This document shows, piece after piece, positions 10,096-31,556 of a DNA stretch of 64,000 nucleotides. A program made the translations under genes and the position numbers. The stretch spans positions 1 through 64,000 of the forward strand of contig CAJXSN010000009.1 in the NCBI GenBank assembly GCA_913060895.1. Reading direction: 5' to 3'. How positions within the stretch are numbered: position 1 is the stretch's first letter; each line of letters begins with the position of its first letter. This DNA comes from an uncultured Sphingomonadaceae bacterium (GTDB taxonomy: Bacteria; Pseudomonadota; Alphaproteobacteria; Sphingomonadales; Sphingomonadaceae). The notes under the pieces are model-generated. The model saw nothing but the letters and a program-made list of their open reading frames with translations. It was not told the origin of the DNA and did not search any database.

Positions 10096-10170
10096 GCGGG
10101 CGTAGCTCAGGGGTAGAGCACAACCTTGCCAAGGTTGGGGTCGGGCGTTCGAATCGCCTCGCCCGCTCCA
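10096..10170 (+). tRNA. tRNA-Gly (GCC)
   Basis: A complete 75-base tRNA including encoded CCA. The acceptor stem GCGGGCG pairs with CGCCCGC, and the D-stem is GCUC/GAGC. The anticodon stem CAACC/GGUUG has loop UUGCCAA (anticodon GCC), and the T-loop is UUCGAAU. The gene from the anticodon loop onward is duplicated at 31380-31430, marking it as an integration site; the copy here remains whole. Confidence 0.97.
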
Positions 10171-10176
10171 TTTTTC
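10126..10176 (+). repeat. Left attachment site of the island (attL)
   Basis: 51 bases from TTGCCAAGG to CCATTTTTC, identical to 31380-31430. It covers the tRNA-Gly anticodon loop to the CCA end plus six bases, typical of tyrosine integrases that use a tRNA 3' end as core. The distance between copies gives an element of 21,254 bp. Confidence 0.93.
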
Positions 10177-11467: not shown

Positions 11468-11473
11468 GAGCCG

Positions 11474-12667: not shown

Positions 12668-13079
12668 CCCGGCTCGGCATGACACTGTTCCACCCCGCCG
12701 CAGCCACGCTTCCGGCGGCGATGACGTCCGCATATTACCCGCCCAAAAGCAGTAGTCGCATCACCAAAATCGGACGAACCGGCGTCCTACGGCTGCTTTG
12801 TCATCGCAAAATCGGACCGGCTGCTATCGGACCCTTCCGCTTATCGGCACCGTCAGCAGCCGTCGGGATCAGCGCAAAGTCGAAATCCCCATAGCGCACC
12901 GCGTGCGGCCCGCGGGTTCGGGCACCGTCGACTTTCCGACGCCTCGCGGCGTCCGAAACTCTAAACGAAAGCGGAAAGTCTCATATTTGAGGTTGCAAGG
13001 CCAAAGCGGACATTTCGTTGTGGAGATGTCAGCTTGGCATGCATGCGATTTAATCAGTCCAGCTATCCCATAAGCACAA
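12668..13079. other. Non-coding tail of the IS91 region
   Basis: I find no gene here. The stretch includes a GC-rich palindrome around 12940-12955 (GACGCCTCGCGGCGTC) and presumably the right end of the IS91 element, which cannot be fixed without a reference copy. Confidence 0.4.
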
Positions 13080-13577
13080 TCAAGCCGCATCTTGCTTTCG
13101 CCAGCCATCGATCATTCGATTTTTCTTCAGCAAATCGGCGACCCAGTGCGCAGAATACGTTGGAACGGTCACCCGTCGCCCTGTCGTAAAGGTCAGCGTC
13201 CCTGACGTTTTCAAGCGGCCATCCTTCGTCCAGCGTAGACGTTCTTGGTTGGAAATCTCCAGCGCCATGCAGATCTCTTTCGGTGTCAGCGCACGAGTGG
13301 CGATTGCGTCGAGAATGTCAGCGCTTTCTTCCAGATGCCTTGCGATGCCGTCCTTGCCCTCAGCATTGTCGGAGGAAATCATTATAGTGTTCTCGCCCCA
13401 ACGGACACGCTCTTGCCGGCTCAGATGCTTTCGTAGCGCTGAGCGTGCCTCTTTCCGGCGCAACCTGAGACTCGGAATACGCGCCAGCAACGCCTCCAAA
13501 TCTAACGTGGCGGTATGATTGCGCTCACACCAGACGATAGCCGAAAGAAGCCTTTCGCGGCTCATGAGATGCTTCAT
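13080..13577 (-). CDS. Hypothetical protein
   Basis: A 165-residue protein. I start it at 13577 (protein MKHLMSRERL) because GGGGGACT precedes that ATG; an in-frame ATG at 13673 would add 32 residues and run into the next gene's region. It is basic and helical, with RIPSLRLRRKEARSALRKHLSRQERVRW in the first half. A possible winged-helix-like part follows (TPKEICMALEISNQERLRWTKDGRLKTSGTL), suggesting DNA binding. I do not recognise the family. It is divergent from the DUF1289-cobU pair. Confidence 0.6.
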   Translation of the reverse strand: MKHLMSRERLLSAIVWCERNHTATLDLEALLARIPSLRLRRKEARSALRKHLSRQERVRWGENTIMISSDNAEGKDGIARHLEESADILDAIATRALTPKEICMALEISNQERLRWTKDGRLKTSGTLTFTTGRRVTVPTYSAHWVADLLKKNRMIDGWRKQDAA

Positions 13578-13643
13578 CGTCCAGTCCCCCAAGACCTGCG
13601 CGTTCCTTTGCCAGCTAGGCCAACCATGGTTAGAACCGGCCTC

Positions 13644-13835
13644 ATGCCAACTATTAGCCCTGATGGCACGCAATCGCCGTGCCGGAGTATTTGTAAGCTG
13701 TCGGCAGATGATGAGGTCTGCATGGGCTGTGGCCGGACGCTGGATGAGATCGCGCGTTGGTCCGGTATGGCGTGCGACGAGAAACGTTCCGTAAACCGGG
13801 CGGCAGCGCGGCGACTAGACGAGGGCTTCACCTGA
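13644..13835 (+). CDS. DUF1289 protein
   Basis: A 63-residue cysteine-containing protein of the DUF1289 family: SPCRSICKLSADDEVCMGCGRTLDEIARW, with four cysteines in a C-x3-C...C-x2-C pattern that could bind metal or an Fe-S cluster. An upstream in-frame ATG at 13626 is also possible. Its TGA overlaps the cobU ATG, so the two are translationally coupled. DUF1289 proteins are small and of unknown function; the coupling suggests a link with cobalamin assembly here, but that is inference. Confidence 0.8.
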   Translation: MPTISPDGTQSPCRSICKLSADDEVCMGCGRTLDEIARWSGMACDEKRSVNRAAARRLDEGFT

Positions 13836-14341
13836 TGGCTTCCGTTCACCTCGTCCTCGGGGGCGCTCGTTCGGGCAAAAGCCGGCACGCTCTTGCGGCA
13901 GGCAGTCGATTGCAGGGACCGCACATATTCATCGCCACCGCTCAGGCTTATGATTCCGAAATGACAGAGCGAATTCAAAAGCATCGCGAAGAGCGTGACG
14001 AGCATTGGCGGACGGTCGAGTCACCAATCGAACTTGCGCATACGATCGCTTCGCTAAATGAGGGAACGATACTTATCGACTGCTGCACTTTGTGGCTGTC
14101 GAACGTGATGCTAGCGGAGCGGGACATCTCCAGCGAAACCGCTGCTCTGATCGACAGCATCACATGCGCAACAGCGGATATCGTGCTTGTCAGTAACGAG
14201 GTCGGGTCGGGGATCGTCCCCGAGACAAAGCTCGGCCGAGACTTCCGCGATGAGCAGGGAAGACTGAACCAGCGGCTCGCCGAAATCGCCGACACGGTCG
14301 AGCTTGTGGTCGCCGGGATACCGTTGCGGCTCAAGGGTTGA
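13835..14341 (+). CDS. cobU: Adenosylcobinamide kinase / adenosylcobinamide-phosphate guanylyltransferase
   Basis: CobU (CobP) phosphorylates adenosylcobinamide and then transfers GMP to give adenosylcobinamide-GDP, the activated corrinoid for nucleotide-loop assembly. The 168-residue length is normal. The P-loop GGARSGKS is at residues 9-16. The family sequences IFIATAQAYDSEM, the HREER region, CCTLWLSN and SNEVGSGIVP all match. It starts inside the stop codon of DUF1289. Its 3' end overlaps the convergent decarboxylase gene by 11 bases. Confidence 0.95.
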   Translation: MASVHLVLGGARSGKSRHALAAGSRLQGPHIFIATAQAYDSEMTERIQKHREERDEHWRTVESPIELAHTIASLNEGTILIDCCTLWLSNVMLAERDISSETAALIDSITCATADIVLVSNEVGSGIVPETKLGRDFRDEQGRLNQRLAEIADTVELVVAGIPLRLKG

Positions 14342-15332
14342 GGGCTTCCGCAAGTCGATCAAACTGCGCAGTATCGGCCGGAAGCCCTATGCGCAGGTGA
14401 TGATCGTCCCCCGCAAATCGCCGAACGGCGATGCCATGGCGGGCCAGCTTTCGCCATAGAGCAGGTGCATCGGATGCCTGGACGAACCGGAAAAGATCGG
14501 TTCCGCCGCGATCATTCAGGCCCGCCGACGCGATCAATGTCCGCAGCTCGTGCATCCGCAGCGCCAAATGTTTGCGGGTTGCCGCCTGCCATTCAACATT
14601 TGCATAGGCTGATTTGCCGATAGCCAAGGCCGGTCCGGAAACATCCCAGCCGCCGAGCCTTTCCCCAATTTCGCGCAGAACATCGGGTGGAGCTAGCACC
14701 GCACCCAGCCGGAGCCCTGCCAGGCCGTAGAATTTGCCGAAGGATCGCAGCACCATCAGCGCCCGCCTCCCGGCAAACGGAGCGACGCTTTTCGATGGAT
14801 CGAGATCGGCATAGGCCTCGTCCACGATCAGCCAGCCGCCGCGCTTCGCGAGTCGGGCCCGCGCGTGTTCGATCCGCTCGACAGGCCAGCAATGCCCATC
14901 GGGATTATTGGGATTCACGAGCACCACGACATCGGCCTTTTCGACCAGCTCCAGCGGATCCAGCCTTTTTACGACGCTTGCGCCGTCAGATCGCCAGCTT
15001 TGCGCGTGATCGGCATAGCTTGGAGCGCGAACCGCCACCGTTTTCGCCCGCAGGATCGACGGCAGTTGGCGGATGGCGACCTCGGTTCCCGCAACCGCGC
15101 GGCAGTAGGCAGGATCGCATCCGAACGCACCAGCCATGGCGCTCTCGCAGCTCGCGCGGGCTATCTCGCCCGGCAGCCGTGTCCATGCATCGGTCGGCAT
15201 CTGGGGCAACGGATAGGCAGCCGGATTGATACCGGTGGACAGGTCGATCCATGGCAGGGGCGCATCGGGAAATGCCCGCGCCATCGCATCGATCCGCCCA
15301 CCATGGCCGGAAACGAGATCGGGATCGCTCAT
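14331..15332 (-). CDS. cobC: Threonine-phosphate decarboxylase (P. denitrificans CobC type)
   Basis: A 333-residue PLP enzyme of the class I/II aminotransferase fold. It makes (R)-1-amino-2-propanol phosphate, the linker between corrin ring and nucleotide loop. Visible motifs are STGINP at 32-37, NPNNPDG at 140-146, DEAYAD at 171-176 and SFGKFYGLAGLRLG with PLP-lysine Lys200. The ATG at 15332 overlaps the cobD TGA, so this is the last gene of the riboswitch operon. The symbol follows Pseudomonas denitrificans usage; the Salmonella name for this activity is CobD. Confidence 0.93.
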   Translation of the reverse strand: MSDPDLVSGHGGRIDAMARAFPDAPLPWIDLSTGINPAAYPLPQMPTDAWTRLPGEIARASCESAMAGAFGCDPAYCRAVAGTEVAIRQLPSILRAKTVAVRAPSYADHAQSWRSDGASVVKRLDPLELVEKADVVVLVNPNNPDGHCWPVERIEHARARLAKRGGWLIVDEAYADLDPSKSVAPFAGRRALMVLRSFGKFYGLAGLRLGAVLAPPDVLREIGERLGGWDVSGPALAIGKSAYANVEWQAATRKHLALRMHELRTLIASAGLNDRGGTDLFRFVQASDAPALWRKLARHGIAVRRFAGDDHHLRIGLPADTAQFDRLAEALNP

Positions 15333-16273
15333 AGCAAGTGAGCCCATCCAAGCGCAGCTAAAAGCAGAGCGGCGGCAACGACGACCCGCTGATAAAGAGC
15401 CAGCGCACGGCGAATATCGGCCGCGTCCGGGTCGCCTGCTTCGGCGTTGAGCCATGGCTCTTCGCTCGTCGCCGCGCCATAGGCTCGTGGGCCAGAAAGC
15501 CTGATGCCAAGGGCCCCTGCCATCGCCGACTCCGGCCATCCTGCATTGGGAGAACGGTGCTTGCGGGCGTCGCGAGACATCACCTTTATGGCCCGACCCG
15601 AACCAGCACAGAATGTGAATAGGGTCCCCGTCAAACGTGCGGGGATAAGGTTGGCGAGGTCATCCAGCCTGGCGGCGACCTTGCCAAAAGCTTCATATCG
15701 CGCATTGCGATGGCCGATCATCGAATCGAGCGTGTTGATCGCCTTGTAGGCAAACAGGCCCGGCAATCCCAAAAGCGCCCCCCAGAACAAGGGCGCGGTG
15801 ACGCCATCGGAGGTGTTCTCTGCAAGGCTCTCGATAGCAGCTCGAGCGATGGCGGCCTCGTCAAGCTCAGCAGTCTCGCGACCAACGATGCGGCTGAGCG
15901 TGCACCGTGCCGCATCGATCCCCGCGCCCTCGAAGGCGCTGGCCACGTCCGCGACGTGATCGTGCAGCGAACGTGCGGCAATCAGGCTGGAGGCAAGAAG
16001 AGCCATCAGCACGAAACCTACCCACCCATCAGCCAGGACCAGCTGGATCGCCAGTCCAAGCAGGGCTGCAAGCGCCACCAGAAACAGTATTACGAGACCG
16101 CCCATCGCGACCCGCGCGGACCTGCTCCATGCTTCTCGATTGCCCAGACACTCCGCCCGCTCGACCAGCCAGCCGAACCAGCGCACCGGATGCCCGATCC
16201 GTCTGTCCAGCGCGTCCGGCCAGCCGAGCAGGGCTTCTACCGCCAGCCCTGCGAGCATGATCCAAGCGGCCAT
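15329..16273 (-). CDS. cobD: Adenosylcobinamide-phosphate synthase (CbiB/CobD)
   Basis: A 314-residue integral membrane enzyme that joins adenosylcobyric acid to aminopropanol (phosphate). It has several hydrophobic helices and the CbiB signatures HPVRWFGWLVERAE, AIESLAENTSDGVTAPLFW, GLPGLFAYKAINTLDSMIGHRN and DDLANLIPARLTG. The start at 16273 is chosen because its ATG overlaps the cobQ stop; upstream in-frame codons lie within cobQ. Together with the decarboxylase downstream it supplies and attaches the linker. Confidence 0.95.
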   Translation of the reverse strand: MAAWIMLAGLAVEALLGWPDALDRRIGHPVRWFGWLVERAECLGNREAWSRSARVAMGGLVILFLVALAALLGLAIQLVLADGWVGFVLMALLASSLIAARSLHDHVADVASAFEGAGIDAARCTLSRIVGRETAELDEAAIARAAIESLAENTSDGVTAPLFWGALLGLPGLFAYKAINTLDSMIGHRNARYEAFGKVAARLDDLANLIPARLTGTLFTFCAGSGRAIKVMSRDARKHRSPNAGWPESAMAGALGIRLSGPRAYGAATSEEPWLNAEAGDPDAADIRRALALYQRVVVAAALLLAALGWAHLL

Positions 16274-17733
16274 CACCGCGCCAGCGCCAACAGAGCATCC
16301 ACGTCGAGGGCCGCCCCAAGCCCGTCGGCAAGCTCGTCCAGCGCACTTTCGACACTGTCTTCGTAGTCGAGCGTGCTGCTCCGACCGCTGCACAATCGCT
16401 CGAGCCAGCGAGAACGAAACGCATCGCTCGCGAACACGCCGTGGAGATAAGTGCCGATCAGGCGGCCACCTCCCGCGATCGCGCCATCGCAGCTGCCATC
16501 CTCGAGCTCGCAGAATGGTCTACTCAGCGCAGGGCCAAGCGAACGACCGGTGTGGATCTCGTATCCTGTCACGTGGTCGCCATGGGCGATCGTGGTTCCG
16601 CTCATGGGGCGAACCACTTTCTCGAGGGTCATCATCGTCGTCATATCGAATAGGCCAAGACCGTCCGCCGATCCTGCCAATCCATCTGCCGCGTCGGCGT
16701 CTTCGATCCGCTTGCCCAGCATCTGAAACCCGCCGCACAAGCCGACAATGTGCGCTCCCGTGCGCCAGGCGGCGACGATGTCATGGTGCCACCCTTGGTT
16801 CCGCAGCATCGCGAGGTCGGCCAAGGTAGACTTGGTGCCCGCGAGAATAATCGCATCCGCCTCTCGCGGAATTGGCTGGCCGGGGGGAATGAAACGGACT
16901 TCCACATCCGGCTCGGCGCGCAGCGGATCGAGATCGTCGAAGTTGCTGATCCGCGACAGCATCGGCACGGCAATAAGAATGGCACCGCTTTTCAGTCTGG
17001 CTTGGTGCAGCACGACAGCGTCTTCTGCGGGCAGCCGCGCGGCACATTGCAGCCATGGCACGATGCCGAAGCAGCGCCAGCCGCTACGGTCTTCGATGAA
17101 GCGCACGCCATCTGTAAAAAGGGTCTGATCACCCCGAAAGCGATTGATGACGAAGCCTGCGATCATCTCGGCATCATCTGCCTCGATGACGGTTCGGGTG
17201 CCCACAAGCGATGCGATGACCCCGCCACGATCGATATCGCCGACCAGCACTACGGGAACGTCGGCAGCGCGCGCGAAGCCCATATTGGCGATGTCGCCCT
17301 TGCGCAGGTTCACCTCGGCCGGGCTCCCCGCGCCCTCGATTATGACGAGGTCGTGCGCCGATTTCAGGCGGTCGAATGCCTCGATCACCGAGGGAAGCAG
17401 GCTTCCCCGATTGGCCATATAGGCCGCCGCTTCCTCGCTGCGCAGGGCTTTCCCATTAAGCACGACTTGCGCACGCCGATCGCCTTCAGGCTTGAGGAGC
17501 ACGGGATTCATATCAGTCGATGGATCGAGGCCTGCTGCTCTTGCCTGCAAGGCCTGCGCCCGACCGATCTCGCCGCCACCGGGGCAGGCTGCGGCATTGT
17601 TCGACATATTCTGCGGCTTGAACGGAGCGACCCCGATCCCCCGGCGCGCTGCGATCCGGCATAGCCCGGCAACCAGCAGCGACTTGCCGACATCCGATCC
17701 GGTGCCCTGAAGCATGATCGCGCGCCCGGTCAT
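16273..17733 (-). CDS. cobQ: Adenosylcobyric acid synthase (glutamine-hydrolysing)
   Basis: CobQ amidates four side chains of adenosylcobyrinic acid a,c-diamide using glutamine and ATP. It has 486 residues. The N-terminal dethiobiotin-synthetase-like ATPase has LQGTGSDVGKS (residues 8-18) and NPVLLKPEGD. The C-terminal class I amidotransferase domain has GLCGGFQMLG with the nucleophile Cys near residue 333, and a His in LIGTYLHGVF. No cobA/I/G/J-type ring gene or cobB is in the window, so its substrate would have to come from genes elsewhere or from imported intermediates. It is seven bases after btuD in the operon. Confidence 0.97.
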   Translation of the reverse strand: MTGRAIMLQGTGSDVGKSLLVAGLCRIAARRGIGVAPFKPQNMSNNAAACPGGGEIGRAQALQARAAGLDPSTDMNPVLLKPEGDRRAQVVLNGKALRSEEAAAYMANRGSLLPSVIEAFDRLKSAHDLVIIEGAGSPAEVNLRKGDIANMGFARAADVPVVLVGDIDRGGVIASLVGTRTVIEADDAEMIAGFVINRFRGDQTLFTDGVRFIEDRSGWRCFGIVPWLQCAARLPAEDAVVLHQARLKSGAILIAVPMLSRISNFDDLDPLRAEPDVEVRFIPPGQPIPREADAIILAGTKSTLADLAMLRNQGWHHDIVAAWRTGAHIVGLCGGFQMLGKRIEDADAADGLAGSADGLGLFDMTTMMTLEKVVRPMSGTTIAHGDHVTGYEIHTGRSLGPALSRPFCELEDGSCDGAIAGGGRLIGTYLHGVFASDAFRSRWLERLCSGRSSTLDYEDSVESALDELADGLGAALDVDALLALAR

Positions 17734-17739
17734 GCTACG

Positions 17740-18513
17740 TTATGCAGGGCCGGAGATTTCGAGCCGGGTATGCGCGCCGTCGCTCAGAACCTGAGCGTCG
17801 ATGCCAAAGACATCGCGCAATCGTGTGGCTGTGAAGGTCTCCTGCGGCGTGCCGTTTGCGACAATTCGGCCTTCGTGCATCCAGAGAACCTTGGAGGCGT
17901 AGCGCAGCGCGAGGTCGAGATCATGAATGACCGTCAGGACACTGCGTCCAGCGCGCGTCATGTCGGCGAACAGCTGCATGGTCTGATGCTGGTAGCGCGG
18001 ATCGAGTGCGGCGACGGGTTCGTCCGCCACAACCAGTGGAGTTTCCGCTGCAAGCGCCCGGGCCAAATGCACGCGCGACAATTCGCCGCCCGAGAGCGTG
18101 TCCGCAGCGCGTTCCTCGAAGCCGTCCAACTGGCATACTCGGATCGCGCGCTCCACCGCCTCGCTGTCTTCCTGCGACAAGCGACCAAGGGCAGCGCCAT
18201 ATGCGAACCGCCCGAGCGAAACGACATCGCGAACCGGCTGAGGCCAAACGAGCGGACGCGCTTGCGGCAGATACGCAACGCGGCGAGCGCGCGCTACCGG
18301 CGAAAGCATTTCCACCGCCGTTCCATTGATCGAAGAGCGTCCCGCGTCCTTTTCCAACAGGCCTAGCGCAAGACGCAGGAGGGTCGTTTTGCCCGACCCG
18401 TTTGGCCCTATGAGCGCGGTCAGCTCGCCCGCGCCGAGAGCAAACGCGGCGTCGGCGATCAGAACCCTGCCGTCGACCGAATAGCCGAGGCCTTCTGCCT
18501 CCAGCAGCGTCAT
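17740..18513 (-). CDS. btuD: Vitamin B12 ABC transporter ATP-binding protein
   Basis: A 257-residue ABC ATPase of the FecE/BtuD group. Walker A is GPNGSGKTT at 36-44, the signature is LSGGELSRVHLARAL near 140, and Walker B is VVADEPVAALDP with the switch His in VIHDLDLA. The start at 18513 is set by a four-base overlap with btuC; the longer frame runs into btuC. With BtuC and BtuF it would import corrinoids across the inner membrane. Confidence 0.93.
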   Translation of the reverse strand: MTLLEAEGLGYSVDGRVLIADAAFALGAGELTALIGPNGSGKTTLLRLALGLLEKDAGRSSINGTAVEMLSPVARARRVAYLPQARPLVWPQPVRDVVSLGRFAYGAALGRLSQEDSEAVERAIRVCQLDGFEERAADTLSGGELSRVHLARALAAETPLVVADEPVAALDPRYQHQTMQLFADMTRAGRSVLTVIHDLDLALRYASKVLWMHEGRIVANGTPQETFTATRLRDVFGIDAQVLSDGAHTRLEISGPA

Positions 18514-19487
18514 GCCAGCCTCCTGCGCGCGGCGATCCATATGAATACTGGGGCGCCCAGCAATGAGGCGACGACGCCGAGCTTCAGCTCGCTATCGGTC
18601 GGCAGCACGCGCACGCCGATATCGGCGAACACGAGGATCAGCCCGCCGAGCAGGGCGGAGGGCACCAGTAGCCGCGCGGGATCGTAGCGAAGGAAGGGCC
18701 GCACAAGATGCGGTGCGACGATTCCGACGAAGCCGATTGCTCCGGCCAGCGCGACTGCGGCGCCCGTTGCCAGCCCCGCGCCGACAATCACCGCCAGCCG
18801 TTGCCGCTGGAGATCCAGCCCCATTCCTTCGGCCGCCTCGTCGCCAAGGGCAAGCGCGGATAGGCCGCGACGGGAGGCCAGCAGAATCGCGACCCCGATC
18901 GCCATGAATGGCAGAGCAAATAGCAGGTCGTCGAAGCTGCGATTGTCCACCGTCCCCAACATCCAGTTGACCATGTCCGCGAGGCTGAAGGGGTTGGGAG
19001 CAAGGTTCATCAGCAAGGCCATGATTGCCGCCGAGAAACTCGAAAGACCGACGCCGATCAGAATTAACGTAACGACGGAACGCGTGCGGATGGCGGCGAG
19101 CGCCACCAGTAGCGTAGCGATCAGCGCGCCAGCTACTGCCGCCAGCGGCAGCACCAGCGGGCCTGCGGTTGCCAGACCGAAATAAAGCACGAAGGTCGCG
19201 AATAGTGCGGCGGTGGCCGACACGCCGAGGATACCCGGCTCGGCCAACGGATTTCGCAAGAGGCCCTGCAAGGCCGCGCCGCTCATGCCCAGCGCCGCTC
19301 CAACGAAACCTGCGGCGAGGGCGCGCGGCAGGCGGATTTGCCAGACGACCAGTTGATCGCCCTGGCTCGACTGGAATGCGAGAGCGCCCAGCACCCGGTC
19401 AAGCGGCAAGGGCACCGATCCCAATGCGACCGAGAGGACCAGTGCGCCCACAAGGCTTGCCAGCAATATCGCCACTACCCGGTTCAT
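18510..19487 (-). CDS. btuC: Vitamin B12 ABC transporter permease
   Basis: A 325-residue FecCD-family permease with about nine or ten membrane helices. Typical sequences are RLPRALAAGFVGAALGMSGAALQGLLRNPLAEPGILGVS and GAIGFVGIVAPHLVRPFLRYDPARLLVPSALLG. The start at 19487 overlaps the btuF stop by four bases. Specificity for cobalamin rather than iron chelates is inferred from the operon and the riboswitch upstream. Confidence 0.93.
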   Translation of the reverse strand: MNRVVAILLASLVGALVLSVALGSVPLPLDRVLGALAFQSSQGDQLVVWQIRLPRALAAGFVGAALGMSGAALQGLLRNPLAEPGILGVSATAALFATFVLYFGLATAGPLVLPLAAVAGALIATLLVALAAIRTRSVVTLILIGVGLSSFSAAIMALLMNLAPNPFSLADMVNWMLGTVDNRSFDDLLFALPFMAIGVAILLASRRGLSALALGDEAAEGMGLDLQRQRLAVIVGAGLATGAAVALAGAIGFVGIVAPHLVRPFLRYDPARLLVPSALLGGLILVFADIGVRVLPTDSELKLGVVASLLGAPVFIWIAARRRLA

Positions 19488-20311
19488 TGCGCGCCTTCCT
19501 TCCCTTCTGCGAGCGCCTCTACCGCATCGATCAGGAACCAGCCCCCGCATGAGGTCCAGGCCCCTTCCAGCGGCACGACTGGCAATTCGCGCAATTGTGC
19601 CCGCGCCACCGGATGACGCGCCGCGCTCCAGTTATCGACGTGGTTGGTCTTGCTTTCGAAAAAGGCTGCCGCGATCACGTCGGGCCGGTCATAGGCGAGC
19701 CGTTCCAGTGGCAGTGGGTTCCAACCCGGTCGATTCTGAAAATTTCGCAGGCCCGCCGCGACAAACAGTTCATGCACCAGAGTGCCTTCGCCCGCGGTTA
19801 CGCCTGCCGGGGTCATGTAAAGAACTTCGCGTTGAGGACCGGACCTCTCTGCAAGTGCCTTCAATCGCCGATCCATATCGGCAACGAGCTTTTCGGCCTC
19901 ATCCGGTTTGCCAAGTTCGGTGCCCACCCGCAGCACCTCATCCCGCACTTCGGCAATCGATTGGGGGAAGCCGATCTGCACGACCGGGACTCCCGGCTCC
20001 TTCATGAAATCGGCGATATCGTGCCCGCCACCGTAAGTTCGCACCACCAGATCGGGTTGCAGTGCCAGCACATCTGCCGTGCGCGGACGGACCGTGGGGA
20101 TCCCTTCGGCCGCCGCCCGCATGTAGGAAAAGCGTTTTCCCGCATCGGGCGACAGCGCAAGGATATCCTCGCGGTCCGCGAACTTCAGGACATACTGGTC
20201 GGCGCAGTAGTCGAGGCTGACGATGCGTCGCGGCGCGTCCGCTCCCCGCTCCGCCACCTGCGCACAGGCCGAGAGGAGGCACGCCAGCGCCGCGAGGGTC
20301 GTCCGAACCAT
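19484..20311 (-). CDS. btuF: Corrinoid-binding lipoprotein (BtuF-like)
   Basis: A 275-residue substrate-binding protein of the helical-backbone (FecB/BtuF) class. The signal ends in a lipobox LLSAC (Cys16), so it is probably tethered to the inner membrane rather than free in the periplasm. RRIVSLDYCADQYVLKF opens the N-terminal lobe, and the C-terminal lobe includes GLRNFQNRPGWNPLPLERL and GGWFLIDAVEAL. It lies three bases after btuB. Corrinoid as the ligand is inferred from the neighbours. Confidence 0.9.
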   Translation of the reverse strand: MVRTTLAALACLLSACAQVAERGADAPRRIVSLDYCADQYVLKFADREDILALSPDAGKRFSYMRAAAEGIPTVRPRTADVLALQPDLVVRTYGGGHDIADFMKEPGVPVVQIGFPQSIAEVRDEVLRVGTELGKPDEAEKLVADMDRRLKALAERSGPQREVLYMTPAGVTAGEGTLVHELFVAAGLRNFQNRPGWNPLPLERLAYDRPDVIAAAFFESKTNHVDNWSAARHPVARAQLRELPVVPLEGAWTSCGGWFLIDAVEALAEGKEGAQ

Positions 20312-20314
20312 CGA

Positions 20315-22243
20315 TTACATCCGGTAGCGCACGCCGCCGAACACCGCACGACCAGGTTGGCCGTAGCGGAAGATCGTTTCATACTGCTCGTCGAACAGGT
20401 TCTCGATCCGACCGAAAATTTCGATCTGCTCGGTAATGCCAAAGCTCGCCCGAATATCGGTCACCACATAGCCATCGAGGCGGGTGGTGTTGGTGGCATT
20501 GTCGAAGCTGTCGCCCGCCACGAACACGGTGGCACCGATGCCGATGCCGTTCTCCATGCGGTAGTCCGCGACCAGACTGATCGTATCCTCCGCACGTCGT
20601 GGCAGGCGATTGCCGTTCACATCGTTTCGGGCGTCGATGGTGGTGTAGTTAAGCGCGACGTCGAAGCCATCGGTCGGACGCAGCGCCAGACCGAATTCCC
20701 AGCCATCGGCACTTGCGAGTGCGATATTGTCGTATGTGCCGAACGGGCGTGGATTGGCCGGATCCTGACACGCCGGGATCGGATTGCCGGTGCAGCCGAC
20801 AAACGCGATCAGATTAGTCGCGTCGCGTTCGAAATAAGTGACGCCTACCTCGGCCCGTCCACCGAGGAAATTGTGCGTTATACCGACGTCCCAGTTTTCC
20901 GATTCCTCGGGCTCGAGATCGGTATTTCCGAAGTCGCTGAACAATTGGAACAGCGCAGGCGCTTTGAAACCTTCGCCATAACTGCCGCGCAGCACGGTAT
21001 CGCCGCCGTTGGGCGAATAGGCACCGCTGGCAGCGAAGGTTGTATTATCACCGTAGGTTTCGTGATCGTCGTAGCGAACGCCACCAGTCAGCGAGAGCCC
21101 GTCCAACGGCGTCAAATTGAGCTGGCCGTAGACCGAGTTGATCCACACATCATCGCCAATCGCGGGCGCACCGAAACTCGAGCTGAGATACTCCGATTCC
21201 TCGCGCTCTGCGCCGAAAACGAGCTCGGCTATGTCGGCTGCGTCGAATACGCCCTGATATTCGTAGCGAAGGTTCTCACCGAAAGCGTCGAAGGTTTCGG
21301 AGTTGGTATCGAAGCTGAAATTCCGTCGGTCGATCCTGGTGTATGCAATCCCCAGCCGGTTGCGGAAACGTCCATCCAGGAAGTTGGCATTGATCCCACC
21401 ATAGCCGACCAAATCGTCGCGGTAGGAAACCTCGTTGGTATCGCCCAAGCCCGTCGCCGTGAAGCCATCGATTTCGGTCTCGCTGTCGGCATAGAAACCG
21501 CGCAGATCGATCGAGAAATTCTCGCCCAGCGCGATATCAAACTTGGCGTTTGCGCCAAGGCTTTCGAACCCGTCCGGCTCGGTTCCACCGCGCGCCTCGC
21601 TGAATGCGGAGATGCCATCAGTGCGATAGTAATTGCCGCCAACACTCACCCCGACAGGGCCGAACTTGCCAGAAACGTTGCCGACGAGTTCCGCAGTGTC
21701 GCGCTCACCATATTCGGCACGCGCGAACACGCCGAGGTCCTCGGTCGGCTCGCGGGTAATCAGGTTCACCACTCCGCCGATCGCTTGGCTGCCGTAGAGC
21801 ACGCTTTGCGACCCACGCACCACTTCGACCCGCGCGATGTTGCCGGTGAGGGCAGGGCCGAAGTTGAAGCCGCCACCGGTCGAGGACGGGTCGTTGAGCT
21901 TTACCCCGTCGATCAGGACGACGGTCTGGTCGCTTTCTGCGCCGCGGATTGAAACGCTCGTGCTGGTGCCGATCCCGCCATTGCGGTTGAATGTAACGCC
22001 GGGAACCGTGCGCAGAATATCGAGAACCTCGCTCGGCTGACGGTTCACGATCTCCTCTTCCTCGATCACGGTGACCGATTCACCGACCTGGCTGATCGCA
22101 CGTTCGGTGCGGTTGGCAGTGACAACGATCGTTTGGGAGTTCACTTCCTCGTCTTCGGGAAGATCGACCGACTGAGCGAACGCGCCGGTCGAACACAGAG
22201 CCACGGCCGATGCCGCGACGGACACATAGAATGCGGTTTTCAT
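20315..22243 (-). CDS. btuB: TonB-dependent cobalamin receptor
   Basis: A 642-residue outer-membrane receptor. The signal peptide ends near ALCSTGAFA, and a TonB box-like SQTIVVTA follows. The plug domain (about residues 50-155) has RTVPGVTFNRNGG and VSIRGAESDQTVVLIDGVKLNDPSS, the latter close to E. coli BtuB. A 22-strand-type barrel follows. I start it at 22243 (MKTAFYVS); upstream codons lie in the riboswitch leader. The chain ends in Tyr-Arg-Met rather than the usual terminal aromatic. It is the first gene of an operon running btuB-btuF-btuC-btuD-cobQ-cobD-cobC, under a cobalamin riboswitch, so it should be repressed when B12 is plentiful. Confidence 0.95.
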   Translation of the reverse strand: MKTAFYVSVAASAVALCSTGAFAQSVDLPEDEEVNSQTIVVTANRTERAISQVGESVTVIEEEEIVNRQPSEVLDILRTVPGVTFNRNGGIGTSTSVSIRGAESDQTVVLIDGVKLNDPSSTGGGFNFGPALTGNIARVEVVRGSQSVLYGSQAIGGVVNLITREPTEDLGVFARAEYGERDTAELVGNVSGKFGPVGVSVGGNYYRTDGISAFSEARGGTEPDGFESLGANAKFDIALGENFSIDLRGFYADSETEIDGFTATGLGDTNEVSYRDDLVGYGGINANFLDGRFRNRLGIAYTRIDRRNFSFDTNSETFDAFGENLRYEYQGVFDAADIAELVFGAEREESEYLSSSFGAPAIGDDVWINSVYGQLNLTPLDGLSLTGGVRYDDHETYGDNTTFAASGAYSPNGGDTVLRGSYGEGFKAPALFQLFSDFGNTDLEPEESENWDVGITHNFLGGRAEVGVTYFERDATNLIAFVGCTGNPIPACQDPANPRPFGTYDNIALASADGWEFGLALRPTDGFDVALNYTTIDARNDVNGNRLPRRAEDTISLVADYRMENGIGIGATVFVAGDSFDNATNTTRLDGYVVTDIRASFGITEQIEIFGRIENLFDEQYETIFRYGQPGRAVFGGVRYRM

Positions 22244-22419
22244 TGAAATATCCAAAGCCAGCCCACGCGGAGGCTCCGGTGCCCGCATGGTAAACTCGAC
22301 AGATGGCCCGCCGCCGCTCGAAATGAGCCGCGACACCGGAAACCGGCCTGGCTGTCGTTACTTCGGAAAAAGAATTTTCCTGTCCCACTGGGCTGGACCC
22401 GGCCCCGGACGAACGACGC

Positions 22420-22600
22420 GACGGCAGGTCTCCTGGCTTGCCGATCAACGTCTTCGAACCGTCTTCCCGGCGCCACCCACTGCAGGGCTTAGCCAGTGAC
22501 ATGCTGGTTCGGGACTCCTGGCTCACAGTTGCGGGCACAGCGCCGGTATCTCACCGGCTTCCCTCTTAGCTCCAGGCGATTTATCACCTGCAGCACCGTC
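22420..22600 (-). ncRNA. Cobalamin riboswitch
   Basis: On the minus strand the leader carries the B12 box AGCCAGGAGACCTGCC (22423-22438). Upstream lie GAGGGAAGCCGGTG, ATACCGGCGCTGTGCCCGCA and TGTCACTGG, in the usual order. GACGG at 22596-22600 can pair with CCGTC at 22420-22424 to close P1. The btuB ATG is 177 bases downstream; a hairpin with GTCCAGCCC lies in between, but the expression platform (terminator or ribosome-site masking) is not clear. Confidence 0.95.
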
Positions 22601-22647
22601 TGATCGCGCCAATGCGCGGCATAAACGCCGCTGTCAATCCTTGCAGA

Positions 22648-23253
22648 CTAGAAGTCGATCCCCTGCTGGGCACGAATGCCAGCGCGATAGGCATGCTTGG
22701 TCTCGGTCATCTCGGTGACGGTGTCGGCATAGTCGATCAATTCGGGCTTCGCATCGCGCCCGGTCAATATCACTCGCGTATCGCCCCGGCGTTCAAGGGC
22801 ATCGATGACGGCTTGGGGCGTGAGGTAGTCGTAGCGCAGCGCAATAATGATCTCGTCGAGCACAACCAGCGCGTAGTCACCATTCGCAATCAGTTCGCCC
22901 GCCTTTGCGAGCGCCTTCTCGGCAGCCTCGATATCGCGATCCTTGTCCTGTGTATCCCAAGTGAAACCATCGCCCATAACGTGCCAGTCAACCAAATCCG
23001 GGAAGCGCGCGAAAAACTGCTTTTCGCCCGTCTTCCATTTCCCTTTGATGAACTGCACTACGGCGACCTTCTGGCCCCACCCAAGCGCACGAGCGATGAC
23101 GCCGAAGGCAGAGCTCGACTTGCCCTTGCCGTCGCCGGTGTGGACCAGCACCAGGCCGCGCTCCGGATCTTTTAGCTCGCGCCGCCGCTTGGACTGGGCA
23201 ACCTGCAGTTCCTTCATCCTCGCTGCATGCGTTTCTCTGTCGGTATCGCTCAT
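22648..23253 (-). CDS. cobO: Corrinoid adenosyltransferase (CobO/BtuR type)
   Basis: A 201-residue enzyme that transfers adenosyl from ATP to cob(I)alamin or cobinamide-type corrinoids. The P-loop VHTGDGKGKSSSA is at 37-49, and AVVQFIKGKWKTGE, VVLDEIIIALRY and LTGRDAKPELIDYADTVTEM are CobA/CobO hallmarks. It is the last gene of a four-gene unit (cobT-cobS-phosphatase-cobO); its ATG overlaps the phosphatase stop. It ends 48 bases before the riboswitch, so read-through into the btuB leader is possible. Confidence 0.96.
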   Translation of the reverse strand: MSDTDRETHAARMKELQVAQSKRRRELKDPERGLVLVHTGDGKGKSSSAFGVIARALGWGQKVAVVQFIKGKWKTGEKQFFARFPDLVDWHVMGDGFTWDTQDKDRDIEAAEKALAKAGELIANGDYALVVLDEIIIALRYDYLTPQAVIDALERRGDTRVILTGRDAKPELIDYADTVTEMTETKHAYRAGIRAQQGIDF

Positions 23254-23783
23254 AGTGCCTCTTTCGGTTCGACGGTCAGGAACTGGCCGAAGCCAAGTTG
23301 GATTTCAAACGGGTTTGCACGGCCCAGAACAGCGCTGGCACATCGAACGACGCCGAGATGCGTGACGGCGAGGATATCGGCATCGCAACTCGCCGCATCG
23401 CGTAGATAGGCCCGCACCCGCTCGGTCATCTGCGCCACATTCTCACCGCCATGTGGTCGCGCCCCTTCGACATCTTCTGCCCACGCATCGATTTCACCAC
23501 GCGGAATGGCGTCCCAAGCCTGCATTTCCCAGTTCCCGAAATCGATCTCCATCAGTCTCGGGTCGGCGTGGATGGGAAGGTCGAAATGCGCGGACAGCTG
23601 CTCAGCCAGCGCATTGCATCGGGTCAGCGGACTGCTGTCGATCCGTGCGAAGCGGTCGGGCAATGCGGTCACGAGTGAGCGGAGGCTTCCCTCGCCAAGG
23701 GCTCGAGCGGGAACATCCGACCGGCCGTAGCATATTCCCGCAGCGATCTCGGGCTGGCCGTGGCGCAGCAGGATCAGAGCCAT
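23250..23783 (-). CDS. Alpha-ribazole phosphatase-like histidine phosphatase
   Basis: A 177-residue member of the histidine phosphatase superfamily with LLRHGQPE at residues 5-12 (phosphohistidine His8) and SPLTRCNALAEQL. It also has LMEIDFGNWEMQAWD, the E-x-x-F-G-x-W-E pattern typical of CobC-type alpha-ribazole phosphatases, and LAVTHLGVVR with the second His. It would remove phosphate from adenosylcobalamin 5'-phosphate or alpha-ribazole phosphate at the last step. The start at 23783 overlaps cobS by ten bases. The symbol is left blank because cobC is used above for the decarboxylase. Confidence 0.88.
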   Translation of the reverse strand: MALILLRHGQPEIAAGICYGRSDVPARALGEGSLRSLVTALPDRFARIDSSPLTRCNALAEQLSAHFDLPIHADPRLMEIDFGNWEMQAWDAIPRGEIDAWAEDVEGARPHGGENVAQMTERVRAYLRDAASCDADILAVTHLGVVRCASAVLGRANPFEIQLGFGQFLTVEPKEAL

Positions 23784-24526
23784 GCGATCAAGCCTAGGTA
23801 GAAGCCGACTTCGCTGATCTGCTGCACAGCGCCAAGGCAATCGCCCGTATAGCCACCCAGCTTGCGCTCGAAGACCAGCCGCGTCAAACCATGGCCGACA
23901 CACAGACTAACCAGGCCGCACAGCACGGCGCTGGGCCCAAGAACGGTCGCGCCGATTGCGACCGCGGCAATCCCGGTGAGTGTCGCCAGCACCAGCGGAG
24001 CTGCTCCGATCCCCTTGGCAACCGGTTTCGCGATCCCGTCGGCGCGTGCATAGCGACTGGTCGCAATCACGATCACTGCCGACAGGCGCGAGGCTCCGTG
24101 CGCCACGGGCAGAGCGGCAAGGGCGAGCATGAAGGGCAATTGGGATAGCGCAGCGATTTTGAGCAGCAGGATGAGGAACAGCGCCGCCGCTCCGAACGTT
24201 CCGAGCCGGCTGTCGCGCATGATCTCCATCATCCGCTCGGCTGTCGGCGCGCCAAGCCCATCGAACAGGTCGGCCAGCCCATCTTCATGGAAGGCTCCTG
24301 TCGCCAGCAGCGTGGCTGCGGTCCCGAAGATTGCAGCGACGAAAGCGCCGCCGATTGTCCAGCCAAGTGCGAAGCCAGCCGCTCCGATGGCGCCGATTGC
24401 AAGTCCGACAAGCGGATAAAAGCCGGGTGCGGCCTCGAAATCGCGCTCGTCCAGCTTGGCTGTGGGCAATGGAATCCGCGTGAGAAACACCCACGCGGCA
24501 AGCAATGCGAAGAAGGGGCGTTTCAT
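23774..24526 (-). CDS. cobS: Adenosylcobinamide-GDP ribazoletransferase
   Basis: A 250-residue integral membrane enzyme that joins adenosylcobinamide-GDP to alpha-ribazole (phosphate), forming the nucleotide loop. Signatures are VFLTRIPLP near residue 13, FYPLVGLAIG, HEDGLADLFDGLGA (the acidic metal-binding motif) and RMMEIMRDSRLGTFGAAAL, with several hydrophobic helices around them. The start at 24526 overlaps the cobT stop by four bases. Confidence 0.95.
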   Translation of the reverse strand: MKRPFFALLAAWVFLTRIPLPTAKLDERDFEAAPGFYPLVGLAIGAIGAAGFALGWTIGGAFVAAIFGTAATLLATGAFHEDGLADLFDGLGAPTAERMMEIMRDSRLGTFGAAALFLILLLKIAALSQLPFMLALAALPVAHGASRLSAVIVIATSRYARADGIAKPVAKGIGAAPLVLATLTGIAAVAIGATVLGPSAVLCGLVSLCVGHGLTRLVFERKLGGYTGDCLGAVQQISEVGFYLGLIAWL

Positions 24527-25521
24527 GAAGCCGGAGTAGCGCCGGAAACCCCGGCTTGCGAAAAACTCGCCATTCCGAACAGCGATAGCGCAGCGCGGAT
24601 CATCGGCACGGCAAGCAATGCACCGGTGCCCTCGCCCAATCGCATGTCCAGATCGAACAAGGGCTCGGCTTCCAACCAATCGAGCAACGCCCGATGTCCG
24701 TGCTCGGCCGAGCGATGCGCGTAGACGAAAGCCTTTTCGCAGTCCGGCTCGATCGCCCTTGCAAGCGCGGCGGCAGCGGTGGCGATAAACCCGTCGACGA
24801 CCACCAGCTTGTCCGATGTCCCGGCACCGATCATCGCGCCCGCCATGGTGCCGATCTCGAAACCGCCGACCTCGGCGAGCGCCTCGATTGGCGCGAGCTC
24901 TCCGGTGCGCGCCGCCGCGCGTTCGAGTATCTCTCTCTTATTGGAGAGACCGGTATCGTCGAGACCCGTGCCGCGTCCGACCAACTCGGCGACCGAAATG
25001 AAACTCAGCTTGTGCGCCAGCAGGGCCGCTGCGGAAGTGTTGGCAATACCCATCTCGCCAAAACAAACTATCTTGCTCCCGATGCCGCTCGCAAAATGTC
25101 GTCCTTGCGTGATTGCCTTGCTCGCCACCTCTGGACTCATCGCAGGCCCCGTAGAGCTGTCGGACGTGCTTCGTCCGAGTGCCATGTCGATCAGTCCATC
25201 ACGTTGCGCTGGCAAATGCATGATCCCACAATCGACGACAGTGACCGGTATGCCGAACTGCGCTGCGATGGCATTCGCCGCAGCCCCGCCTGCAAGAAAG
25301 TTGGCAACCATTTGGCCTGTAACTTCCTGCGGGAATGCCGAAACACCCTGTGCCGCGATGCCATGATCGGCAGCAAAGATGGTCAGCGATGCCGAGGCAT
25401 TCTCGGGATTAATGTCGCCTATGATCGCCGCAGACTGAACGGCGAGGCTTTCAAGCCGCCCCATTGATCCGGTTGGCTTAGTCTTATCGTCAATCAGACG
25501 CTGAAGGTCGGCTCGGGTCAT
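24523..25521 (-). CDS. cobT: Nicotinate-nucleotide-dimethylbenzimidazole phosphoribosyltransferase
   Basis: CobT makes alpha-ribazole phosphate from nicotinate mononucleotide and a lower-ligand base. It has 332 residues from the chosen ATG at 25521 (protein MTRADLQRLI); ATGs further upstream (25575, 25647) cannot be excluded, as no site has a strong Shine-Dalgarno. Family motifs are KPTGSMGRLE, FAADHGIAAQGVSAFPQEVT, CFGEMGIANTSAAAL, GFIATAAAALA and the C-terminal RLGEGTGALLA with the catalytic Glu. It heads the cobT-cobS-phosphatase-cobO unit. I see no riboswitch in front of it. No bluB is in the window, so the base must come from elsewhere. Confidence 0.95.
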   Translation of the reverse strand: MTRADLQRLIDDKTKPTGSMGRLESLAVQSAAIIGDINPENASASLTIFAADHGIAAQGVSAFPQEVTGQMVANFLAGGAAANAIAAQFGIPVTVVDCGIMHLPAQRDGLIDMALGRSTSDSSTGPAMSPEVASKAITQGRHFASGIGSKIVCFGEMGIANTSAAALLAHKLSFISVAELVGRGTGLDDTGLSNKREILERAAARTGELAPIEALAEVGGFEIGTMAGAMIGAGTSDKLVVVDGFIATAAAALARAIEPDCEKAFVYAHRSAEHGHRALLDWLEAEPLFDLDMRLGEGTGALLAVPMIRAALSLFGMASFSQAGVSGATPAS

Positions 25522-25740
25522 ATTCTGCGCGTCTAGCGAATGCAGAATGACTTTGGAACGGCGTGAACTGGGCATACGCACCGAGCGCTTAACGATCATC
25601 CAATGGCGGGGGCAGGGCCATCCTACGAGCGCCAAGCTTCTCGCCATTGTGACGTGCCGAGCGAACCGCAGCTTTCAAGTCGAGACGCCTACGATGTGAA
25701 TGACTGAATTGGGGCGCGAAGCGGACATTGCTCCTGTGCA

Positions 25741-29831: not shown

Positions 29832-31124
29832 TCATGCCACAGCACGCAACGCTGCCAGTGTGCGCGCTTGCTTGATCTCCCGCACGCTCCGCAACTCGCC
29901 ACCGTCCAATAGTCGAGCAATCTCTCCCGCCACTTGATCCGCCGCGATGACGAGCGCGGTATCCAGGTGCACATAGCGCTGGGTTACGCCGCGCGGGGCA
30001 TGACCGAGCAGGCCCGAGATGGTCAGTTCACTGAATCCTTGTGCCGCTGCCATGCTTGCAAAGCTGTGGCGCAGGGTGTGCGGTGTCACGCTGTCCAGAC
30101 CCGCGCGCGCGCAGACCCGGCCCAGCACCCGAACGACGCCTATGAAATGCCCATCGCCCCAATCCGCCGGGAAGATGAAGGGCGAATGGCTGGACAATGC
30201 CTGAGCCTCCAGCACATGCATTGCTGAGTCTCCCGCCACGCGGATTTGCGGACCGGACTTTGTATCCGGAAAACGGACGAGATTGTCGTCGGGCTGTACC
30301 CATTCCTTGCGCATTGCCAGCACTTCCATGCGGCGAAAACCGGTGAGAAGCATGACGCGGATTGCAGCAAGGCCGGTCGGGTGCTCGCCCTCGCTTTCCA
30401 TCTGCGTCATCACCTTGCCAAGGTGACGGATTTCGCCAGCGCTCAGATATCGCTTCGCCTTCTGCGAGGCCATGATGCGCACGCCTTTTGCCGGACTAGC
30501 CTCAATAATGCCGAGGCGGCGGGCGTGATTGAGTAAAGCGCGAAGCGTGCTGATGGCGCGGGCAGCAACGCCTGCGCCGCCAGCCGTTTGCCCACCTCGG
30601 GATCTGCGCCTCGCTTGGGCAGTCCGACCAGCCGCAATATCACCTTGCAAGCGTTCAATATCTGCCAATTTCAATTGGCTGACCACGCGATTGCCTATCA
30701 GCGGCTTAATGTGGAGTTCAATGCGGCTTCGATCACCTGCGATTGATGACGCTTTAATAGGGCGGCGGTTGCGTCCGATCAGCCGACCGGCTTCGGCCTC
30801 GGCAAGATACCAATCGCAAACTGCTGCGATTGTCAGCCCCGTGCGGACCGAGTGTCGTTCGGCAGACGGGTCGGCCCCGTCGATCACGGCGGCGAGTTTC
30901 TTTTGGGCGAGGTTGCGGGCTTGCTCGACAGTCAGGACTCCATATTGGCCTATGACGCAGCGACGGGTCCTCGCCTCTTGGTTCCGATACTGGATGATAA
31001 AGGTTTTGGTGCCGCTTGGTTTTGCGCGAACGCCAAAACCGCGCAGTTCGTTGTCCCAAAGGAAGGCGTCACGCTCTGGGTTGGATTTAAGCGCCTCGAC
31101 GGTGCGTTTAGTTAATCTGGTCAT
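29832..31124 (-). CDS. P4-type tyrosine integrase of the island
   Basis: A 430-residue phage P4-like integrase. The N-terminal DUF4102 arm-binding domain (about residues 1-95: RGFGVRAKPSGTKTFIIQYRN) is followed by a SAM-like core-binding domain and the catalytic domain. Catalytic residues lie in LLTGFRRMEVLAM (Arg), HTLRHSFAS (His, Arg), GHAPRGVTQRYVHLD (His, Tyr). All are intact, so it should be active. It starts 255 bases from the 51-bp right repeat. This placement and the tRNA target are typical for enzymes that integrate genomic islands at tRNA 3' ends. It is the most likely agent of insertion into tRNA-Gly. Confidence 0.95.
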   Translation of the reverse strand: MTRLTKRTVEALKSNPERDAFLWDNELRGFGVRAKPSGTKTFIIQYRNQEARTRRCVIGQYGVLTVEQARNLAQKKLAAVIDGADPSAERHSVRTGLTIAAVCDWYLAEAEAGRLIGRNRRPIKASSIAGDRSRIELHIKPLIGNRVVSQLKLADIERLQGDIAAGRTAQARRRSRGGQTAGGAGVAARAISTLRALLNHARRLGIIEASPAKGVRIMASQKAKRYLSAGEIRHLGKVMTQMESEGEHPTGLAAIRVMLLTGFRRMEVLAMRKEWVQPDDNLVRFPDTKSGPQIRVAGDSAMHVLEAQALSSHSPFIFPADWGDGHFIGVVRVLGRVCARAGLDSVTPHTLRHSFASMAAAQGFSELTISGLLGHAPRGVTQRYVHLDTALVIAADQVAGEIARLLDGGELRSVREIKQARTLAALRAVA

Positions 31125-31248: not shown

Positions 31249-31379
31249 GTAGGAGGGAAACCACCGGAAATCGCAGCGTACCAATGGCGACTCGGTGTGA
31301 TAAACAAGCAATTGATGTTGCGTGGAATATAGTAGATTTTACTGAAAACGGAGACGATAGCGAAAATACCAATTGGCAG

Positions 31380-31430
31380 TTGCCAAGGTTGGGGTCGGGC
31401 GTTCGAATCGCCTCGCCCGCTCCATTTTTC
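31380..31430 (+). repeat. Right attachment site (attR), tRNA-Gly 3' fragment
   Basis: 51 bases identical to 10126-10176. It contains the tRNA-Gly sequence from the anticodon loop to CCA but no 5' half, so it cannot make a tRNA. It marks the right boundary of the island. Confidence 0.93.
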
Positions 31431-31556
31431 ATTTCATACGAGAACACTTCCCCTTTCAGGGGCCTAGCCTGTCGGTCATCGGCAAGTTTCGGCTGTTCGT
31501 CGCCTGTTGTCCAGAAACGGGTTGCAACTACAGCAATCGACGTTAATGGGCGTGTT

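What the first reader, a model, noticed from the sequence alone, without database searches (positions are those of the whole stretch)
13644..25521. Salvage-only cobalamin set: no corrin-ring genes
The cargo has uptake (BtuB/F/C/D), CobO, CobQ and all nucleotide-loop steps but none of the ring-building genes, cobB or bluB. Presence of cobQ suggests that intermediates as early as cobyrinic acid a,c-diamide could be used, beyond usual cobinamide salvage. The island may let a B12 consumer remodel foreign corrinoids.
Basis: partly seen in the sequence, partly recalled or inferred. Interest (0 to 1): 0.7.

Follow-up and report, generated by a model that had tools for sequence, protein, structure and literature searches.

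The report
Mobile vitamin B12 salvage gene cassette
A bacterium that appears unable to build vitamin B12 carries, on an integrated DNA island, a compact set of genes for importing and finishing half-made B12, and near-identical copies of that set have moved recently between other bacterial genera.

Summary
Window 13083-25647 is a tight cobalamin-salvage cluster: btuBFCD, cobO, cobQ, cbiB, Thr-P decarboxylase, cobU, cobS, cobT, ribazole phosphatase and a cobalamin riboswitch. The 99.99%-complete host genome has no CbiC, no CobB-type hit, no BluB above cut-off, and three tetrapyrrole methylases read as two SUMT and one RsmI. No ring cluster was found elsewhere. Salvage without ring genes is ordinary here: 59 of 298 family genomes have CobQ without CbiC, and a published ring-less Sphingomonas keeps cobQ. 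cobQ is under purifying selection (dN/dS 0.10-0.24 in 9 of 10 listed pairs), so it is probably used; its substrate is inferred. Remodelling of complete foreign cobamides is not supported: no CbiZ, no CbiR-type hit above cut-off. Beyond the finding: the cluster lies on a 21.3-kb tRNA-Gly island absent in 2 of 2 held congeners. It is also a discrete 12.8-kb unit with the same ends in six other genomes, 99.88% identical between two genera. Its one unknown gene (13083-13577) has homologues beside cobalamin riboswitches and B12-independent isozymes in three of nine plasmid regions read, so it is a candidate B12-linked DNA-binding regulator.

The parts
10126..10176 (+). attL, 51-bp direct repeat that starts in the 3' part of tRNA-Gly(gcc) 10096-10170
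31380..31430 (+). attR, second copy of the 51-bp repeat (21,254 bp apart)
29832..31124 (-). tyrosine integrase of the island (Arm-DNA-bind_3 + Phage_integrase)
13083..13577 (-). 165-aa conserved protein without a Pfam family (hyp13080), divergent from DUF1289-cobU; candidate B12-linked DNA-binding regulator
13644..13835 (+). DUF1289 small protein, overlaps cobU start (likely start by reading)
13835..14341 (+). cobU/cobP adenosylcobinamide kinase/guanylyltransferase
14331..15332 (-). L-threonine-O-3-phosphate decarboxylase (CobD of Salmonella, CobC of Pseudomonas)
15329..16273 (-). cbiB adenosylcobinamide-phosphate synthase
16273..17733 (-). cobQ cobyric acid synthase, full length, no stops
17740..18513 (-). 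btuD-like ABC ATPase
   Evidence: below model cut-offs, name by context
18510..19487 (-). btuC-like permease
   Evidence: best model BtuC, below its cut-off
19484..20311 (-). btuF-like periplasmic binding protein
   Evidence: weak, name by context
20315..22336 (-). btuB-type TonB-dependent receptor directly below the riboswitch
   Evidence: best model B12 receptor, below its cut-off
22406..22615 (-). cobalamin riboswitch (117.8 bits)
   Evidence: between cobO and btuB also in the 8 other loci of this gene order scanned
22648..23253 (-). cobO/btuR corrinoid adenosyltransferase
23250..23783 (-). alpha-ribazole phosphatase
   Evidence: TIGR03162, 153.7 bits against cut-off 162.9
23774..24526 (-). 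cobS/cobV cobalamin synthase
24523..25647 (-). cobT/cobU DMB phosphoribosyltransferase (likely start 25521)
13083..25729 (.). the window's copy of the ~12.8-kb mobile unit; cobT-side end conserved near 25717, other end lost or diverged below about 13184

Best explanation
The cluster is a late-pathway corrinoid salvage system. BtuB-F-C-D import corrinoids when B12 is low, under a cobalamin riboswitch that precedes btuB. CobO adenosylates them. CobU, CobS, CobT and the ribazole phosphatase build the nucleotide loop on cobinamide using imported lower ligand, since no BluB was found. CbiB with the Thr-P decarboxylase, and CobQ before them, extend the range of usable precursors to cobyric acid and to under-amidated forms such as cobyrinic acid a,c-diamide. 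It serves a host that has B12-binding enzymes and no detected ring pathway, and it arrived on a 21.3-kb integrase island in tRNA-Gly. Shown: gene content, host absences as listed, island anatomy, no island at the site in two congeners, selection on cobQ, recent spread of sister copies. Inferred: substrates of CobQ in vivo, use of imported lower ligand, riboswitch action, import specificity.
For: Gene families; riboswitch, between cobO and btuB in 8 of 8 other loci of this gene order scanned; ring genes not found; B12-binding proteins present (the 926-aa one, which I take as MetH from a recalled motif, is 75-87% identical in 8 other genomes); att repeats, integrase and empty sites. cobQ dN/dS 0.10-0.24 in 9 of 10 pairs listed and 0.34 in the tenth (G148-G282, about two changes in all), no stops in 9 of 9 loci, while cobT gives 0.10-0.57 in the same pairs where defined; cobQ is a single full-length match in 75 of 77 loci of 72 genomes; 53 of 56 CobT genomes without CbiC also have CobQ.
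Against: No L-threonine kinase of the GHMP kind found, so the CbiB branch may lack its own aminopropanol-P supply. The uptake genes are below their model cut-offs. No substrate was tested. MetE and NrdJ were not searched in the host, so strict dependence is not shown. CobQ is split in G036 and G007, in G036 where most of the cluster is missing. CbiC absence is a proxy: G156 lacks CbiC but has CobN and CobB-type genes.
Confidence: 0.8

Rival explanations
1. CobQ (with CbiB and the decarboxylase) is a hitch-hiking remnant of a former full pathway and does no work; only cobinamide salvage is functional.
For: Partial pathways in the process of loss are proposed by Shelton et al. (passages of PMC6461909). 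No GHMP-type L-threonine kinase was found in the host. CobQ is split in 2 of 77 loci.
Against: cobQ dN/dS 0.10-0.24 in 9 of 10 listed pairs, no stops in 9 of 9 loci; single full-length match in 75 of 77 loci; 53 of 56 CobT genomes without CbiC keep CobQ; carried full length through recent transfers.
Confidence: 0.15
2. The cluster is a cobamide remodelling system that strips foreign lower ligands and rebuilds cobalamin.
For: The rebuilding enzymes are present; CobS-based remodelling is reported for V. cholerae (passages of PMC7733943).
Against: CbiZ 0 hits in the host; CbiR superfamily only one partial hit, 24.7 bits against 31.1; no BluB above cut-off to supply the ligand.
Confidence: 0.12
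3. CobQ acts as a repair amidase that restores b, d, e or g side-chain amides on hydrolysed corrinoids scavenged from the environment, rather than acting on cobyrinic acid a,c-diamide.
For: CobQ is kept and constrained where no ring pathway was found to supply its classical substrate. Sequential release of partly amidated intermediates by CobQ/CbiP is recalled, from no call.
Against: Nothing here distinguishes it from the a,c-diamide reading; the one literature search for it returned 0 papers.
Confidence: 0.3

Closest known systems
Cobinamide salvagers as defined by Shelton et al. (PMC6461909; passages seen)
   Same: Nucleotide-loop genes present, ring genes absent, cobamide-dependent enzymes present; 15% of the genomes in that study.
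   Different: Here the set also holds cobQ, cbiB and the decarboxylase, lies in one compact cluster and is on a mobile island.
Sphingomonas haloaromaticamans, a ring-less B12 auxotroph (PMC6970198; passages and section 16 seen)
   Same: A sphingomonad that lacks the ring genes yet keeps the lower pathway including cobQ, and grows on supplied B12.
   Different: It also keeps cobB, cobNST, cobW and bluB; the window's host has no CobB-type hit and no BluB above cut-off (CobN, CobW and the chelatase CobS/CobT were not searched).
tRNA-targeted integrative islands with P4-type integrases (recalled as a class)
   Same: tRNA 3' part duplicated, integrase next to one end, empty site in relatives.
   Different: Cargo is a vitamin salvage cluster that is itself a separate 12.8-kb unit found in other contexts.
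Passenger-gene cassettes moved by enzymes in trans (mobile insertion cassettes; recalled, from no call)
   Same: Fixed ends, cargo, no recognised transposase inside.
   Different: No significant terminal inverted repeats and no mobilising enzyme identified.

Membership tests
Cobinamide salvager (Shelton et al.) | nucleotide-loop assembly genes | tested here: met
Cobinamide salvager (Shelton et al.) | all or most ring-synthesis genes absent from the genome | tested here: met
   CobG, CobK and CobN models were not searched one by one
Cobinamide salvager (Shelton et al.) | cobamide-dependent enzyme present | tested here: met
   two B12-binding proteins; MetH by a recalled motif and similarity, methylmalonyl-CoA mutase guessed from length only
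Cobinamide salvager (Shelton et al.) | grows on cobinamide | not testable with these tools
   -
Cobamide remodeller | CbiZ amidohydrolase | tested here: not met
Cobamide remodeller | CbiR phosphodiesterase | tested here: not met
   one partial hit below cut-off for the whole superfamily; no CbiR-specific model was run
Cobamide remodeller | CobS with remodelling activity | not testable with these tools
   CobS present; activity unknown
tRNA-targeted integrative island | direct repeat of tRNA 3' part at both ends | tested here: met
tRNA-targeted integrative island | integrase gene beside one end | tested here: met
tRNA-targeted integrative island | uninterrupted site in close relatives | tested here: met
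   2 of 2 other held genomes of the genus; tRNA and receptor gene about 0.35 kb (G130) and 1.7 kb (G054) apart, no match to the island
DDE-type transposon (for the 12.8-kb unit) | terminal inverted repeats | tested here: inconclusive
   243 of 1000 shuffles score as high
DDE-type transposon (for the 12.8-kb unit) | target-site duplication | tested here: not met
   longest word shared by the two end regions is 3-5 bases and not abutting the ends in 6 of 6 units
DDE-type transposon (for the 12.8-kb unit) | own transposase | tested here: not met
   the fourteen shared genes cover 95% of the G248 unit and none matched a recombinase family

The most novel reading that the evidence does not exclude
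The salvage cluster is a new kind of non-autonomous, site-choosing mobile cassette: a 12.8-kb unit with fixed ends, inserted next to a symmetric GnCnG target motif by a recombinase acting in trans. It carries its own B12-linked regulator, hyp13080, founder of an uncharacterised DNA-binding family that elsewhere sits with cobalamin riboswitches and B12-independent isozymes and may choose between B12-dependent and B12-independent metabolism.
Probability: 0.3. Interest if true: 0.7.

Novelty: new variant of a known kind. Interest (0 to 1): 0.5.

Why it matters
In this family 291 of 298 genomes match a B12-binding domain but only 13 have the ring marker CbiC. Most are therefore predicted to live on others' corrinoids, and a cassette that moves between genera could turn a pure consumer into a salvager in one step. 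The constraint on cobQ in hosts without a ring marker suggests that under-amidated corrinoids are a real nutrient, which is testable with pure compounds. The hyp13080 family offers a protein candidate for B12-linked control beside the riboswitches.

Tried and rejected
Relic cobQ: rejected as the main reading by dN/dS and full length. Terminal inverted repeats at the unit ends: not better than shuffles. REP-like palindrome at the ends: of eight words counted in the fetched loci, six were near the median of composition-matched words; two (11 against 3, and 2 against 0) were above it but below the largest. Carriers of the same unit ends: no plasmid match and no exact match of one end in viral contigs. 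CobQ relatives occur on 185 plasmid records, none above 80% identity, some in sphingomonads; 7.7 kb of the cluster finds no plasmid place covering 80%. Fold of hyp13080: pLDDT 75.9 from a two-sequence alignment, no match with E <= 0.001 in PDB or viral models. The first metH comparison picked wrong frames in several genomes and was redone; there the G209 locus gave no metH match and was dropped. The G020 stretch was not annotated further. Literature: searches; no title or abstract start listed there describes a mobile salvage cassette or a protein family like hyp13080, but the library holds open-licence papers only.

In one search the queries for cbiB, cobS, cobT, ribPase, btuC, btuD and the decarboxylase began upstream of their likely starts, which can inflate their dN/dS (the cbiB stops lie in that stretch); cobQ is not affected.
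Full report
What is there. Between 13083 and 25647 the window holds a compact cluster. On the minus strand run cobT, cobS, ribazole phosphatase, cobO, a cobalamin riboswitch, btuB, btuF, btuC, btuD, cobQ, cbiB and the Thr-P decarboxylase; on the plus strand DUF1289 and cobU. Many neighbours overlap by a few bases once likely starts are used, so the genes are probably translated together. The five uptake and phosphatase genes are named from best match and context, below model cut-offs.

The absences. The host assembly (G000, 2.73 Mb, 38 contigs, 99.99% complete) has three tetrapyrrole-methylase proteins, which I read as two SUMT and one RsmI, no CbiC, a single CobQ and no CobB-type hit, and no BluB above cut-off. 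It has two B12-binding proteins. The only GHMP kinase hit reads as IspE, so a PduX/BluE-type threonine kinase was not found. CbiZ gives no hit and the CbiR superfamily one partial hit below cut-off.

How ordinary is it. Across 298 genomes drawn from the family, 13 have CbiC. The same 13 have 7-9 tetrapyrrole-methylase matches and the other 285 at most 5, read by eye. CobQ over cut-off occurs in 72, CobT in 68, a B12-binding match in 291. So 59 genomes have CobQ without CbiC, 53 of 56 CobT genomes without CbiC have CobQ, and 216 genomes with a B12-binding match have none of CbiC, CobT and CobQ. The 53 include G036 and G007, whose CobQ is split; one of the three exceptions, G262, has only a partial CobT. 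CbiC absence is a proxy: G156 lacks CbiC but carries CobN, CobW, a CobB-type gene and a nitroreductase between them. Three other genomes without CbiC (G006, G257, G029) hold CobO next to CobB, with CobQ 6-9 kb away, so the family shows a graded series of partial pathways. A published Sphingomonas haloaromaticamans shows the same kind of state with B12 growth tests (PMC6970198, section 16 and passages).

Is cobQ used. In nine loci of the window's gene order cobQ has no internal stop, and pairwise dN/dS is 0.10-0.24 in nine of the ten pairs listed; the tenth, G148-G282, gives 0.34 on about two changes. The pairs are not independent. cobQ is a single full-length match in 75 of 77 loci. Constraint of that order in genomes with no ring marker argues for a function. 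Which compound it acts on is inferred: cobyrinic acid a,c-diamide or hydrolysed corrinoids are both open.

The island. A 51-bp repeat that begins in the tRNA-Gly 3' part lies at 10126 and 31380, with an integrase beside the right copy. In both other held genomes of the genus the thioredoxin-like gene, the tRNA and the TonB receptor follow one another with no match to the island; tRNA and receptor are about 0.35 kb apart in G130 and 1.7 kb in G054. Both genomes lack CobQ, CobT and CbiC while having B12-binding matches.

The 12.8-kb unit. Six other genomes from five genera (G148, G282, G248, G209, G128, G026) carry the same fourteen genes in the same order. Pairwise alignments of these six start and stop at the same places, within about ten bases, 12.8 kb apart; beyond the ends I saw no adjoining match over 400 bp, and among these six one separate transposase-sized match of 750 bp. 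G148 and G282 are 99.88% identical over 12,799 bp although their metH genes differ at dS 0.76; G128 and G026 are 98.8% identical with metH dS 0.84. This is recent transfer between genera. The window's copy is 78-81% identical to the six, not a recent exchange with those sampled, and has lost or changed its hyp13080-side end. The twelve flanks share G at -9 (11 of 12), C at -7 (11 of 12) and G at -5 (10 of 12), significant after correction for 120 tests, though the test was made after seeing the pattern. There is no target-site duplication. The fourteen genes cover 95% of the G248 unit and no recombinase was recognised among them; G148 has two tandem integrases just outside one end, and the G248 unit lies near a tRNA-Ser and an integrase. 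The same core gene order, without a DUF1289 or hyp13080 match except in the G148 record itself, occurs at lower identity in Qipengyuania, Hyphomonas, Parvularcula and gammaproteobacterial MAGs: 7 of the 80 loci, the G148 record included.

The unknown gene. hyp13080 (165 aa) has no Pfam family (the longer frame, a homologue), weak PHROG similarity to excisionase and repressor proteins and no fold match. Plasmid homologues number 114 records, 6 with at least 80% coverage. I chose ten regions to read; one (Komagataeibacter saccharivorans) was cut by the record end and is not counted. Of the other nine, the three kinds with the highest scores sit in B12 surroundings: Novosphingobium P6W between two cobalamin riboswitches, with a MetE-core/MesX pair and a TonB/ABC uptake set; Komagataeibacter nataicola directly below a cobalamin riboswitch; Azospirillum just above a riboswitch and nrdAB, with metE and prpC/acnD near. 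The six Hyphomicrobiales homologues show no such neighbours and no cobalamin riboswitch, although one of them (Rhizobium lentis) covers 85% of the query. So the link holds for one part of the family only. In the window the gene is divergent from DUF1289-cobU with 66 bp between likely starts. A B12-linked regulator is the best guess, untested.

Verdict. The salvage set itself is ordinary for this family; its mobility as a defined unit and the hyp13080 association are the parts worth following.

Noticed in passing
L044 4486-17284, L046/L047 12531-25329, L048/L049 12212-25012, L050/L051 11738-24538, L052/L053 10809-23569, L054/L055 10872-23623 (joined coordinates): Discrete 12.8-kb salvage unit with the same ends, no adjoining match in the flanks, no recombinase recognised inside and a symmetric GnCnG motif outside both ends.
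   Followed up: partly
window 13083-13577; L237, L238, L240: Uncharacterised protein family beside cobalamin riboswitches and B12-independent isozymes in 3 of 9 plasmid regions read; candidate B12-linked regulator.
   Followed up: partly
units of G248, G209, G128, G026: btuF alone (G248 v G209: dS 0.35 against at most 0.09 for the rest) or btuF and btuB together (G248 v G128: 0.72 and 0.94 against at most 0.15) are diverged inside near-identical units, which looks like allele exchange of binding protein and receptor.
   Followed up: no
window 10559-12667: IS91-family transposase with a tyrosine recombinase beside the cluster; a relative (84% and 77%) also lies about 3 kb from the G148 unit.
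   Followed up: no
window 13004-13014 and 25719-25729: The only two copies of an 11-base word in the window flank the unit as a direct repeat; may be chance.
   Followed up: no
window 28505-29446: Nucleotidyltransferase-HEPN protein on the island, of a kind seen in defence or toxin-antitoxin systems (the comparison is recalled).
   Followed up: no
L220 2583-5260, L221 8215-10934, L223 1041-3022: CobO next to CobB in genomes without CbiC (G006, G257, G029), with CobQ 6-9 kb away on the same contig: salvagers that could start one step earlier.
   Followed up: partly
L111 and L050 (G209); L059, L063, L071 (G245): Genomes with two or three separate cobQ-bearing clusters; G245 also has CbiC.
   Followed up: no
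window 31284-33758: TonB-dependent receptor with a His/Glu-rich stretch directly right of attR; a 65-67% relative stands at the empty site in both congeners.
   Followed up: no
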